Of a DNA stretch of 39,657 nt, positions 500 through 4,237 are shown piece by piece. Under the pieces are notes generated by a model. It worked only from the letters and a program-made list of their open reading frames with translations. It was not told where the DNA came from and searched no databases. The translations under genes were made by a program, and so were the position numbers. The stretch comes from an uncultured bacterium. Lineage in GTDB: Bacteria; Cyanobacteriota; Vampirovibrionia; Gastranaerophilales; Gastranaerophilaceae. Every line of letters begins with the position of its first letter. Position 1 is the stretch's first letter. The stretch spans positions 1 to 39,657 of the forward strand of contig CANAIK010000010.1 of the NCBI GenBank assembly GCA_947361225.1. The letters run 5' to 3'.

Positions 500-800
500 A
501 TTTCTCTCCTTTTTTTAAATGACGTTCAACTCCCGTCCCCTTTTTGACTTTTTATTGCTTTTTAAACGGTTCTTGTTTGGTTGGAATATTTTTTTTGATT
601 TTCAATGGGGATGATAATTTATTGTATATGTTTTTTGATAATTAGTCAACTATTAATTGAGTAGAATAAACTAAATATTTATTTATTGTTTAAAAAGCCC
701 ATTTTATTTTAAAGGGAAGAAACTAGAATAAAAAATGGTTTATAAAAATAAATTTTATAAACTATCGATATATAATTAATGTTTTATACTAAACTTAGCT
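500..800. other. AT-rich intergenic stretch, no gene seen
   Basis: No credible coding frame with a ribosome binding site was found. The only visible structure is an A/T-only-loop inverted repeat at 738-762 (GTTTATAAAA, then TTTTATAAAC), which lacks the G/C base and clean T-run of a convincing terminator. The stretch close to 500 probably contains the promoter of the minus-strand HNH gene, but no clear -35/-10 pair could be chosen. Confidence 0.5.
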
Positions 801-826
801 AGATGCCGAAATAAATTCGCCATGAC
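801..826. repeat. REP-like palindrome, short form, copy 1
   Basis: A 26-base palindromic element whose complement reads GTCA, a stem, a short AT loop, the opposite stem, then TCT. The stem has one mismatch (left arm ATGCCGAA, right arm TTCGCCAT). It is almost the same as the copy at 1024-1049 and shares its end motifs with the longer elements at 934-1012 and 6579-6660. Confidence 0.75.
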
Positions 827-933
827 GGGTTTTAGGTAGTTTAATTTTAAAAATTTAAAATTCTGACAAACTAGGATTAAAGGCAGTTGCAATTTGGTTT
901 GCTTTACTTAAAGTGACATCATTACTTGCAACC

Positions 934-1049: not shown

Positions 1050-1099
1050 AGGGTTTTAAACCTTTAAGTGGGAGCCTTTTTGCTCCTGGGGGACTTCGT

Positions 1100-1293
1100 C
1101 CCACGTCGCTCATATAATGCTCAAGTCTGTCAAGCTCAACGCTTGCCAGCCTTTTGAGCACCGGCTCACGCATTGCTCCTGAGGGAATCAAAGATTCCCA
1201 CGTCGCTCATATAATGCTCAAGTCTGTCAAGCTCAACGCTTGCCAGCCTTTTGAGCACCGGCTCACGCATTGCTCCTGAGGGAATCAAAGATT
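1100..1293. repeat. 97-bp perfect tandem duplication, GC-rich
   Basis: Two adjacent 97-base units (1100-1196 and 1197-1293) are identical by eye. Each contains a long hairpin: TGCTCAA at 1118-1124 pairs with 1154-1160, CTG pairs with CAG, a T-C mismatch follows, then CAAGC pairs with GCTTG around a TCAAC loop. A second short hairpin follows (GGGAATC, AAA, GATTCCC). The array is much richer in G and C than surrounding DNA. No protein is convincingly encoded; the period is not a multiple of three. Confidence 0.9.
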
Positions 1294-1470
1294 CCCACGT
1301 CGCAAGATCGATAGTTACATATAAAACGAAAACTCATCGTTTCCGTTTTATATTCCACCCCGGGCGGAGCCCTGCTCCTGGGGGAATCAAAGATTCCCAC
1401 GTCGCAAGATCGATAGTTACATAAACGTCTTGCTCGACGCAAGCCGTTTATTCCACCCCGGGCGGAGCCC
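1294..1470. repeat. Two further hairpin modules with swapped stems
   Basis: Two modules share the flanks CCCACGTCGCAAGATC and TCCACCCCGGGCGGAGCCC but carry different hairpins between them. The first (1319-1353) has outer arms ATATAAAACG and CGTTTTATAT, an A-C mismatch, a 4-bp inner stem and loop TCATC. The second (1421-1451) has outer arms ATAAACG and CGTTTAT, a T-C mismatch, inner stem CTTGC/GCAAG and loop TCGAC. Sequence differs while shape is kept. Confidence 0.85.
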
Positions 1471-1472
1471 GT

Positions 1473-1511
1473 AAAAAAAGAGGGTCAAAGAAAACTAAAA
1501 AAATGACCCTC
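1473..1511 (-). terminator. Minus-strand terminator after the glycine-rich gene
   Basis: Read on the minus strand, GAGGGTCA (1511-1504) and TGACCCTC (1487-1480) form an 8-bp stem with a 16-base loop, followed directly by seven T residues. It lies about 160 bases beyond the stop of the glycine-rich prepilin-like gene and is its most likely transcription end. Confidence 0.7.
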
Positions 1512-1670: not shown

Positions 1671-4082
1671 TTAGTTCCATTCGATTATTACCGTGCCGTC
1701 TGCGCCTTTTCCGCCTTGCGATGCGCTAAAGTTCTTGGTGGAACCGCCTCCGCCTCCGCCACCGCCGTTAATGGCGCCTTGTTTTCCTTCTGCGGTTGAA
1801 AGAGGATAGTTGCACGTGCCTGAGGGCATGTTTCCACCACACCCCCCAAGACCTCGAAGGGAGTCGAATAATGAACACAGAGACGGTGAAACATTGCCTC
1901 CAACCCCGCCATAGCCGTCTTTTCCGTTTTCACCTTTGGCTTGGTTTTTAATTGCATTGTTGGAGTTTCCTCCTGTGCCGTGGGTTGAATTGGAGCCTGC
2001 GCCCCCTCCAAGACCGCCTTTGGAGCGTGCAAAAATTTGTGAGCTTATTGAAATGTAGCTGTCAGACCCTTGGGAGCCGTTTTGACCTGTATAGATTCCT
2101 GAGGATTGGTTTACAGCGCCCGGATTTCCGCCTTTTCCAATTTTTATGTCAACTTTTTGTCCGGGGGTTACACTTAGACTGTCAACTACAATGACTTGTC
2201 CTGAGGCGCCGCCGCCTCCGTTTGAGTTGATAAATTCAATGTATATAACGCCGTCCGCTCCTTTGCCTCCGGCTCCGGCGCTTGTGGTAGAGCCTCCGCC
2301 TCCGCCTCCTCCGGTTCCATAGTTTGTGGATAGGGCATTGGACCCGCTCCCGCCTGAGGATCCGCCTGATCCTCCTGAAATTAGTGAGTTTGCTTTTGTA
2401 TATGTTCCGCCGCCTGCTCCCCCGAGGGTTCCTGAGCCTACTGAGCCGCTTTTTCCTGTTTGGTTGCTTATTCCGAGCCAGTTTTTGTACGTTGCTTTGC
2501 TTGATGGATTAGATGTTTTAAATCCTCCGCCAACACCTGCTGCACCGTTTGTTGAGCCGGCTTTTCCGCCTGAAACTGAGGCTACAACGGAGTTATTTAT
2601 ACTTATGCTTGTTGTTCCTCCTTGAGAGCCTGCTGACCCTCCTTTTCCTATTGTAAAATTTAGGGTTTGTCCCGGGGTTACGGCGATTTCACCGACAAAA
2701 ACTTCGCCGGCACCCCCTCCGCCTCCGCCTTTTCCATCTACAGCAGGGGTTCCCGGGGTTGCGGGGGTTCCGGGGATAGTGTATGAACAGGAAAGTGCAT
2801 TTGCAAGAGCAGCTACGCTATAGGTAACCCGCATTGCTCCGGGTTTTGTTCCGTTACAATTTGTGGTTCCAAAAACTGTTGATGAACTTGCTCCGGTTGC
2901 AGCTTTTCCGCCCCCGCCAATTGTTTCACAACTTGCATTTGCGGCTGGACTACAAGAACAATTGGATGGACAAGTAGCCTTACTTCCACCAGCTCCGCCA
3001 TTTCCACCTTTACCGCCAGCTCCACTACTGGAAACACAGCCATTTGTTCCGTTCCCTGCGCCGCCGCCTCCGCCTCCACCGCCGCCGGCTTCAAAAAGAA
3101 TAGTTCCTGATGAATTTGTTATGGCGGTAGAACCTCCGCCGCCTCCACCGCCGCCGCAAGTGCAACCACCAACGCTGTTAGAAGAACCATTTCCGCCGTT
3201 TGCACCTGAAGTGCCACCAGCACCACCTGCACCACCTTTGCACGCACCAGATGATGATCCAGCACGCCCATTGCTGCCTTGGGTACCAACGATTAAGTTG
3301 ATTCCGTCTGCTCGATCACTTATAGTGACAGATTCATCTTTTTTATAAGCTCCTCTGCCTCCACCTGAATCACTCGTTGAATTACTCATTTTTGGACCTT
3401 TGCCACCTCCTGCGCCACAGGCTGTAACTGTTGAAATGGTTATTGTTGCGTTATTTGGAAATGTCGATATCTTTCCTCCGGGTGATACTGTTTCTCCTGT
3501 CGAAACAACCGTCCAAGAGCCACTACAATCACTTGCAAGAGAAGGGGCTTTATAACTATCGGGTGGAGTTATGGAAGTGAAAGCAAATGTCCCCGGTGTT
3601 TTTAAATCAGCACTTGTAATATTACTTAAAGATGGCGCAGACCCATACTTCGTCCCTGTGCTTGCATCTCCTGCGGGGGTTCCGGAGGTAGCAGGGGTTC
3701 CTTTTGTCCCGTTGGCGCCGCCTCCCCCGCCGCCTGTCATATATACTCTTATTTTGTTTACTCCGCTGGGTACAACCCAGTTTTGCGTCGAGGTTATTGT
3801 TTTTTCTCCGTAAGACGCTCCCCCGCCGCCCCCTCCGCCTGCTACAGAGGTGACTTTTATCCTTCTTACTTTGGTTGGGACTTCCCACTTGTCGTCTTCT
3901 GTAAAAACTTTGGATTGGTACGATACAATTTTTCCTTGCGTTAAGGATAGTTGATTCGACCTTAGTTTTTTTGTCATTATTGGAGCAAAAGCCGTAATAA
4001 TTATCGAAATTGTAATAATTGACACTAAAAGTTCAACTAAAGAAAATGCAAAGGGAAAGTTCTTATTTTTTTTGGGTAACAT
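1671..4082 (-). CDS. Prepilin-type protein with glycine-rich modules
   Basis: An 803-residue protein beginning with a type IV prepilin-like signal: basic leader, then A12|F13 with Glu at mature position 5 (FSLVELL) and a hydrophobic helix to about residue 32. After a short linker come modules very rich in Gly. One starts with the WVVPSGVNKIRVYMTGGG pattern of the glycine-rich domain family, and successive modules end in similar strands (GAMRVTYS, GADGVIYIEF, GADGTVIIEW). Many Cys lie between about residues 200 and 440. The ATG at 4080-4082 is chosen because AAGGAG sits just upstream; a longer frame exists but has no such site. A prepilin peptidase would trim it and a pilus/type II-like machine would assemble or export it. 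Its GC-rich codons reflect the Gly content rather than transfer. Family call good; role (minor pilin, adhesin) inferred. Confidence 0.85.
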   Translation of the reverse strand: MLPKKNKNFPFAFSLVELLVSIITISIIITAFAPIMTKKLRSNQLSLTQGKIVSYQSKVFTEDDKWEVPTKVRRIKVTSVAGGGGGGGASYGEKTITSTQNWVVPSGVNKIRVYMTGGGGGGANGTKGTPATSGTPAGDASTGTKYGSAPSLSNITSADLKTPGTFAFTSITPPDSYKAPSLASDCSGSWTVVSTGETVSPGGKISTFPNNATITISTVTACGAGGGKGPKMSNSTSDSGGGRGAYKKDESVTISDRADGINLIVGTQGSNGRAGSSSGACKGGAGGAGGTSGANGGNGSSNSVGGCTCGGGGGGGGSTAITNSSGTILFEAGGGGGGGGGAGNGTNGCVSSSGAGGKGGNGGAGGSKATCPSNCSCSPAANASCETIGGGGKAATGASSSTVFGTTNCNGTKPGAMRVTYSVAALANALSCSYTIPGTPATPGTPAVDGKGGGGGGAGEVFVGEIAVTPGQTLNFTIGKGGSAGSQGGTTSISINNSVVASVSGGKAGSTNGAAGVGGGFKTSNPSSKATYKNWLGISNQTGKSGSVGSGTLGGAGGGTYTKANSLISGGSGGSSGGSGSNALSTNYGTGGGGGGGSTTSAGAGGKGADGVIYIEFINSNGGGGASGQVIVVDSLSVTPGQKVDIKIGKGGNPGAVNQSSGIYTGQNGSQGSDSYISISSQIFARSKGGLGGGAGSNSTHGTGGNSNNAIKNQAKGENGKDGYGGVGGNVSPSLCSLFDSLRGLGGCGGNMPSGTCNYPLSTAEGKQGAINGGGGGGGGSTKNFSASQGGKGADGTVIIEWN

Positions 4083-4237
4083 CTTTCTTAACTCCTTTAA
4101 AAGTTTTATTAATAAATACATTACCATAATACAATATTTTTTTAAACAAGTACATTACTTTTTTTAAAAAAATGTTACCTAAACAAATAATCAATAATTT
4201 AGTGGATATGTAATTTTATAATTTTTTTTGTGAAAAT

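What the first reader, a model, noticed from the sequence alone, without database searches (positions are those of the whole stretch)
1100..1470. GC-rich array of hairpins that keep one shape while changing sequence
Three different hairpins in one array share the same plan. Each has an outer stem, a single A-C or T-C mismatch, an inner stem of 4-5 pairs, and a five-base loop of the form TCNNC (TCAAC at 1136, TCATC at 1334, TCGAC at 1434). The modules at 1319-1353 and 1421-1451 have the same flanks but different stem bases that still pair, which is compensatory change seen within one array. A 97-bp unit is also perfectly duplicated. The block is GC-rich within very AT-rich DNA. Seen: repeats, pairing and loops. 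Inferred: a selected structure, perhaps a protein-bound single-stranded hairpin (as with REP and their transposases) or a structured RNA family.
Basis: seen in the sequence. Interest (0 to 1): 0.75.

Follow-up and report, generated by a model that had tools for sequence, protein, structure and literature searches.

The report
Mobile hairpins that conserve shape only
In a gut bacterium related to cyanobacteria, about 100-base DNA repeats scattered next to genes keep exactly the same hairpin shape and loop while the letters of the stem are replaced wholesale, and they seem to insert by duplicating their target, using an enzyme that we could not find.

Summary
The window lies in a Candidatus Gastranaerophilales genome. 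Four ~95-nt units (1082-1469) each hold a short hairpin (hp1) and a longer one (hp2) with loop TCNNY. A covariance model found the same unit in all 28 genomes of the genus (482 copies, 1-43 each). In 113 distinct units, 14 of 15 modelled pairs change on both sides and 96.6% of cells pair (shuffled 74.8%). Of 86 hp2s chosen without a loop criterion, 81 have TCNNY.

G-U pairs are almost absent (7 of 735, against 6.6% in nearby terminators). Units 3 and 4 of the window have identical flanks but unrelated, still-paired hp2 stems, so hairpins are exchanged whole rather than drifting base by base. Isolated units are flanked by direct repeats of 12 bp or more in 18 of 47 cases (1.35% expected). At tRNA-Leu/gatB and groEL, empty sites carry one copy of the target and filled sites two or more.

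Best reading: non-autonomous, REP/MITE-like mobile elements recognised by DNA hairpin shape. Y1/RAYT, IS110, Cas1, RT and integron integrase do not track them, and no Rfam family matches. The mobilising enzyme is unknown. New variant of a known kind.

The parts
1082..1171 (+). Unit 1: GCTCCTGGGG - hp1 - CCACGTCGC - hp2 - CACCGGCTCACGC
   Evidence: model R1, 70.4 bits
1175..1268 (+). Unit 2, same type as unit 1
   Evidence: model R1, 93.7 bits
1272..1371 (+). Unit 3: same 5' part, hp2 AAAACGAAAAC-TCATC-GTTTCCGTTTT, 3' module CCACCCCGGGCGGAGCCC
   Evidence: model R1, 79.0 bits
1374..1469 (+). Unit 4: flanks identical to unit 3, different hp2 ACGTCTTGC-TCGAC-GCAAGCCGT
   Evidence: model R1, 83.1 bits; flanks identical and core 0.35 identical to unit 3
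1090..1102 (.). hp1 of unit 1, GGGAC-TTC-GTCCC
1183..1199 (.). hp1 of unit 2, GGGAATC-AAA-GATTCCC
1280..1296 (.). hp1 of unit 3, GGGAATC-AAA-GATTCCC
1382..1398 (.). hp1 of unit 4, GGGAATC-AAA-GATTCCC
1123..1153 (.). hp2 of unit 1, loop TCAAC (GTTGA on the minus strand)
1220..1250 (.). hp2 of unit 2, loop TCAAC
1319..1353 (.). hp2 of unit 3, loop TCATC; a 26-29-nt core (about window 1322-1350) is found 100% identical in order-level relatives
1421..1451 (.). hp2 of unit 4, loop TCGAC
1099..1292 (.). Perfect tandem duplication of 97 bp
1351..1372 (.). 3' module TATTCCACCCCGGGCGGAGCCC, repeated at 1449-1470
1480..1511 (-). Intrinsic-terminator-like stem plus T tract (GAGGGTCA..TGACCCTC, T7 on the minus strand) of the neighbouring gene; the array starts just beyond it
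   Evidence: sequence
1671..4127 (-). Neighbouring gene: glycine-rich secreted protein (PF21722) with a prepilin-like N-terminus

Best explanation
The array is a local cluster of a clade-specific family of short, non-autonomous mobile palindromic elements in Gastranaerophilales. SHOWN: each ~85-150-nt unit has fixed sequence motifs (GCTCCTG.GG, CCACGTCGC, CGGCTTACGC) and hairpins whose sequence is free but whose shape is fixed: almost perfect Watson-Crick stems, purine-purine mismatches on one strand 5-7 pairs from the loop, and a pentaloop TCNNY (RNNGA on the other strand). SHOWN: units occur beside gene ends and tRNA genes, often flanked by direct repeats; empty sites in other species hold one copy of the target. 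SHOWN: hp2 can be replaced as a block while its flanks stay the same. INFERRED: the elements move as DNA; an unidentified trans-acting protein recognises the folded hairpin (shape plus loop) rather than a stem sequence, inserts it with a duplication of roughly 13-34 bp, and clusters then grow by repeated insertion and tandem duplication. Because only shape is read, arms are free to change or be exchanged, which also limits recombination between copies. INFERRED: the working strand is probably the minus strand of the unit, which folds better and is usually in the sense of the nearest gene.
For: Family in 28/28 genomes of the genus, 1-43 copies, and hp2-like cores in other families of the order. 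Covariation: 113 distinct units found by model, 14/15 pairs changed on both sides, score 0.480 against 0.123 +/- 0.007; 28 ungapped hairpins 0.878 against 0.213, falling to 0.23 or less when slid by one column. In 86 distinct hp2s taken without a loop criterion 81 have TCNNY, and the four inner positions are 344/344 Watson-Crick with no G-U although G-U was allowed; hp1 203 Watson-Crick to 1 G-U; nearby terminators 6.6% G-U. Flanking direct repeats of 12 bp or more in 18/47 isolated units against 1.35% in permuted controls. Empty and filled sites: tRNA-Leu/gatB (empty L282, L285, L295, L297; filled L274, L276, L277, L289) and groEL 3' end (empty L326 and L329, the latter the window's own genome; filled L316, L319, L327, L336). 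Hairpin swap with identical flanks. Absent from phage and plasmid records.
Against: No mobilising enzyme was found: Y1 1/28 genomes of the genus, IS110 0/28 over its cut-off, Cas1 3/28, integron integrase 0/28 over its cut-off, RT 12/28. Most isolated units (29/47) show no clear target duplication, and its length varies widely, which a classical transposase would not give; tandem reiteration with flanking DNA, as described for REP clusters (PMC3733652), could produce part of it. Orientation bias towards gene sense (52 of 72 arrays, 11 of 11 tRNAs, with crude ORF calls) would also fit a transcribed element. Movement itself was not observed; relatives are separate species represented largely by fragmentary metagenome assemblies.
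Confidence: 0.6

Rival explanations
1. Structured RNA element: the minus strand of the unit is transcribed as a 3' UTR or leader RNA, folds into hp3-hp2-hp1 with GNRA-like pentaloops and tandem G.A internal loops, and controls mRNA or tRNA processing or stability.
For: Minus strand is in the sense of the nearest gene in 52/72 arrays and 11/11 tRNA neighbours; it folds more stably than the plus strand; the RNNGA loop and purine-purine mismatches are plausible RNA motifs; one relative has its unit-like hairpin between 23S and 5S rRNA (L031).
Against: Almost no G-U pairs (1.0% plus strand, 1.9% counted on the minus strand, against 6.6% in nearby terminators); no Rfam match; in the window's genome arrays sit beyond the terminator; hairpins swap whole; copy number and sites vary greatly between species.
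Confidence: 0.15
2. REP/RAYT system: hp2 is a REP-type hairpin mobilised by a Y1 (RAYT) transposase.
For: Dispersed, clustered, intergenic imperfect hairpins with a conserved mismatch; RAYT-sized PF01797 proteins occur in other genera of the family.
Against: PF01797 absent from the own genome and from 27/28 genomes of the genus that carry up to 43 copies; RAYT genes of relatives are not flanked by these hairpins; Y1 transposases make no target duplication (established knowledge), whereas flanking repeats are frequent here.
Confidence: 0.08
3. No transposition: target repeats and hairpins arise by replication template switching and tandem duplication at stalled forks, with gene conversion between the two arms keeping stems perfect.
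For: Variable repeat lengths, tandem copies (L283, L321), inverted copies of the target inside some elements at tRNA-Leu and groEL, near absence of G-U pairs.
Against: The same fixed motifs and loop recur at unrelated sites and in other families of the order; the inverted-target copy is not general (mean longest match 5.5 against 5.3 in controls).
Confidence: 0.12
4. Intrinsic terminators: hp2 is a bidirectional terminator kept at gene ends.
For: Some hp2s carry A and T tracts, e.g. L337 at groEL.
Against: Only 16/86 have a T tract after the 3' arm and 7/86 on the other strand; in the window the gene already has its own terminator; arrays hold up to four units.
Confidence: 0.05

Closest known systems
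REPs / BIMEs with GTAG tag and RAYT transposases; REPINs
   Same: Short imperfect palindromes, intergenic, many per genome, mostly downstream of genes, clustered, with stem subfamilies that stay complementary (PMC3733652, PMC3116915)
   Different: No GTAG tag attached to hp2 as a rule, no RAYT in the genome, composite ~95-150-nt unit, fixed pentaloop with free stem, flanking direct repeats, almost no G-T pairs (G-T pairing is reported as frequent in GTAG stems, PMC3733652)
CGTC-tagged REPs (incl. Neisseria dRS3, Rickettsia RPE)
   Same: Palindromes with 4-5-nt loops, no known dedicated transposase (PMC3733652); mosaic clusters in Neisseria
   Different: In the units CGTC follows hp1 one base away rather than tagging its 5' end, and stems do not begin with AT. 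Ordinary CGTC-like REPs are present separately at 800-833 and 1023-1056
Bacterial MITEs (Correia/NEMIS, RUP, ERIC, Nezha)
   Same: 70-300 bp, non-coding, next to genes, fold strongly
   Different: No terminal inverted repeats seen at the unit ends, longer and variable flanking repeats, no parent IS found
Small dispersed repeats of cyanobacteria (Elhai et al. 2008, title known through citations; text not held)
   Same: Very short mobile hairpin repeats in a sister lineage (from own knowledge)
   Different: Could not be compared in detail; those are 21-27 nt according to memory
Integron attC sites
   Same: Folded single strand recognised by shape with free stem sequence (established knowledge)
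   Different: No integron integrase over its cut-off, no attC box pair noticed, conserved loop instead of conserved boxes

Membership tests
REP/RAYT (GTAG REPs) | RAYT (Y1, PF01797) gene in the genome | tested here: not met
   0 matches in G000, 1/28 in the genus
REP/RAYT (GTAG REPs) | REPs flank the RAYT gene | tested here: not met
   No TCNNY hairpins of this kind near 20 PF01797 loci
REP/RAYT (GTAG REPs) | GTAG tetranucleotide at one end of the palindrome | tested here: not met
   GTAG precedes hp2 only in some units (CGTAGTGC); others read GATAGTT or GGTTACGCC
REP/RAYT (GTAG REPs) | Dispersed, intergenic, imperfect palindromes in many copies | tested here: met
   482 copies in 28 genomes, near gene ends
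CGTC REPs | CGTC directly at the 5' end of a stem that begins AT, loop 4-5 nt | tested here: not met
   Units lack it; definition from PMC3733652
MITE | Terminal inverted repeats | tested here: not met
   Unit ends GCTCCTGAGG and CGGCTTACGC are not inverted copies
MITE | Target site duplication | tested here: inconclusive
   18/47 isolated units with 12 bp or more of flanking repeat, variable length; empty sites
MITE | Parent transposon with matching ends | tested here: inconclusive
   No parent element or cognate transposase was found; IS110 0/28 over cut-off and RT not linked; other DDE families not searched
Integron attC | Integron integrase | tested here: not met
   0/28 over cut-off for TIGR02249; the best hits score far below it and look like XerC/D
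Known structured RNA (Rfam 15) | Match to a covariance model at gathering score | tested here: not met
   Only tRNAs found; three sub-threshold matches over the array
CRISPR-like arrays (Cas1 insertion duplicates the repeat) | Cas1 in genomes that carry arrays | tested here: not met
   3/28 genomes over the cut-off

The most novel reading that the evidence does not exclude
A new class of mobile DNA whose identity is coded by hairpin geometry instead of sequence: an unknown enzyme of Gastranaerophilales recognises a folded strand with a TCNNY/RNNGA pentaloop and fixed mismatch, inserts ~100-nt hairpin cassettes next to transcribed genes with a long, variable target duplication, and exchanges hairpin arms between cassettes, giving CRISPR-like alternations of a host-derived repeat and different hairpin units (L234: a 33-bp tRNA-Leu leader repeat three times with two different units between).
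Probability: 0.25. Interest if true: 0.85.

Novelty: new variant of a known kind. Interest (0 to 1): 0.62.

Why it matters
Most mobile repeats are defined by a conserved sequence that an enzyme reads. Here the stem sequence is almost free while pairing, mismatch place and loop are fixed in hundreds of copies, in a lineage with few genetic tools. It is a natural data set on recognition of DNA by shape, it gives a concrete target (find the protein that binds the TCNNY/RNNGA hairpin), and the long target duplications do not fit the common bacterial transposition mechanisms.

Tried and rejected
Y1/RAYT link: absent from the genome, RAYT loci without the hairpins. Integron attC: no integron integrase over the cut-off. 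IS110/bridge RNA: 0/28 over the cut-off. Cas1: 3/28. Reverse transcriptase: 12/28; genomes with RT have more copies (median 25 against 12, p 0.02 uncorrected, no control for relatedness), but at least the two RTs checked (own genome, G005) sit beside Avd-like proteins of diversity-generating retroelements, and units lie near only 3 of 14 RT loci. Idea that each element carries an inverted copy of its target: true by eye at groEL and tRNA-Leu, but not general (5.5 against 5.3 in controls). Known RNA family: none. Decayed gene: ruled out by covariation and by spread over 28 genomes. Viral, phage or plasmid origin: the hits in viral contigs are chance matches without hairpins, no match in phage or plasmid records. 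Bacteria outside this group are mostly chance matches without palindrome or hp2. A general test of hairpin swapping by flank identity was inconclusive with fixed slices and was replaced by stem-aware flanks. tRNA acceptor stems as a G-U control failed because of bad parsing and are not used.

Full report
What is there. The block at 1080-1480 consists of four units of about 95 nt (1082-1171, 1175-1268, 1272-1371, 1374-1469). Each has a short hairpin hp1 after GCTCCTG, the motif CCACGTCGC, and a longer hairpin hp2 with a five-base loop TCAAC, TCATC or TCGAC. Folding is far beyond shuffled sequence (z -5.9 as DNA). The block is 51% GC in DNA of 32-34%.

Where it is. Titles of related contigs name Candidatus Gastranaerophilales gut bacteria. 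The window's own genome has further units on contigs C5, C25, C63, C68 and C71. In this genome the arrays read at C5, C63, C68 and C71 and the one in the window lie just beyond the intrinsic terminator of large secreted genes: cysteine-rich paralogues, and in the window a glycine-rich protein with a prepilin-like N-terminus. A covariance model of 16 units finds 482 copies in the 28 genomes of the genus, 1 to 43 per genome, in every genome. A 26-29-base hp2 core of unit 3 is found identical in other families of the order, in intergenic places such as between 23S and 5S rRNA genes and beside tRNA genes.

Structure is under selection, sequence is not. For 28 hairpins aligned without gaps all 12 pairs change on both sides, 89% of cells pair (54% shuffled), and the covariation score is 0.878 against 0.213, dropping to 0.23 or less when slid by one column. 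Those hairpins were partly chosen by pairing, so the test was repeated on 113 distinct units found by model: 14 of 15 pairs change on both sides and the score is 0.480 against 0.123 +/- 0.007 (the alignment is fitted to the model, so pair counts lean towards it). When hp2 is located by pairing alone with no loop criterion, 81 of 86 distinct hp2s have the loop TCNNY. Units picked only by the hp1 motif in public genomes also nearly always have a TCNNY hairpin downstream when the organism is a Gastranaerophilales, and not when the match is a chance one.

DNA or RNA. The stems are almost purely Watson-Crick: 728 Watson-Crick, 7 G-U, 125 mismatches, with the inner four positions 344 of 344 Watson-Crick; hp1 shows 203 to 1. 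Intrinsic terminators of the same contigs have 6.6% G-U. Mismatches are Pyr-Pyr or A-C on the plus strand, that is Pur-Pur or G-U on the minus strand, mostly 5-7 pairs from the loop. The minus strand folds better for each window hairpin, and it is in the sense of the nearest gene in 52 of 72 arrays and 11 of 11 tRNA neighbours (crude ORF calls). The lack of G-U and the exchange of whole hairpins argue for DNA; the orientation bias leaves an RNA role open. Related sequences were counted as independent, so p-values are indicative only.

Whole-hairpin exchange. Units 3 and 4 of the window have identical flanks on both sides of hp2 but stems that are only 35% identical and of different length, both paired apart from one mismatch; the same is seen between L012 and L013 of this genome and between relatives. 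This is replacement of a block, not slow compensatory change.

Insertion. Isolated units have a flanking direct repeat of 12 bp or more in 18 of 47 cases, against 1.35% for permuted flanks. At the tRNA-Leu/gatB locus, four species have an empty site with one copy of the tRNA 5' end, and others have one or more hairpin units between two to four copies. In L234 a 33-bp stretch of tRNA-Leu leader occurs three times with two different units between. At the groEL 3' end the window's own genome (L329) and L326 are empty, while L316, L319, L321, L327 and L336 are filled and repeat the last codons. Other targets by eye: tRNA-Arg, tmRNA 3' end. This fits insertion with target duplication, but lengths vary (about 13-34 bp where clean) and some longer repeats include a third hairpin module, so part may be tandem reiteration.

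Machine. No gene family tested tracks the elements: Y1, RT (the two checked belong to diversity-generating retroelements), integron integrase, IS110, Cas1. The window's array has no match in the phage and plasmid collections.

Compared with the known. The nearest kinds are REPs/BIMEs and CGTC REPs (PMC3733652), REPINs (PMC3116915, seen as an abstract) and MITEs. REP clusters are described as reiterated with segments of flanking DNA, mostly downstream of genes, which is similar. The defining marks of each were tested and not met, or are inconclusive (see membership table). I therefore file it as a new variant of bacterial dispersed palindromic repeats that works like a shape-recognised mobile hairpin, not as a member of the REP/RAYT family. 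No paper on such repeats in this lineage was found in the open library; subscription papers were not searchable.

Noticed in passing
window 800-833 and 1023-1056: Two copies of a separate palindrome that reads CGTCATGCCGAATTTATTTCGGCATCTA (or a close variant) on the minus strand, which fits the CGTC-tagged REP family (PMC3733652); similar sequences also occur near the other arrays (L010, L013).
   Followed up: partly
L345 (G000:C57:4000-11000), 2388-3943: The window's genome carries a diversity-generating retroelement (Avd-like protein plus reverse transcriptase); similar pairs occur in several genomes of the genus.
   Followed up: partly
window 1671-4127 and L011-L013: Family of large secreted surface genes, cysteine-rich or glycine-rich, the window's with a prepilin-type N-terminus, that share the same terminator and 3' flank; the hairpin arrays sit at their 3' ends and could promote recombination among paralogues.
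   Followed up: partly
L234, L274, L283, L289 (tRNA-Leu/gatB) and L252: A second element type (CTCTCG-hairpin-CTTCGGCAGAGTGCC) inserted at the same tRNA-Leu site, with an inverted partial copy of the tRNA-Leu 5' end (GATGTGGCGAA).
   Followed up: partly
L265, L316, L319, L321, L327 (groEL 3' end): Third hairpin hp3 whose right arm is the groEL 3' end itself and whose left arm changes with it between species (GTAATTTT/AAAATTAC and GTAAAACC/GGTTTTAC).
   Followed up: partly
contig ends, e.g. G016:C59, C60, G024:C22, G003:C20: Many units lie at contig ends, so the elements probably break short-read assemblies and true copy numbers are likely higher.
   Followed up: no
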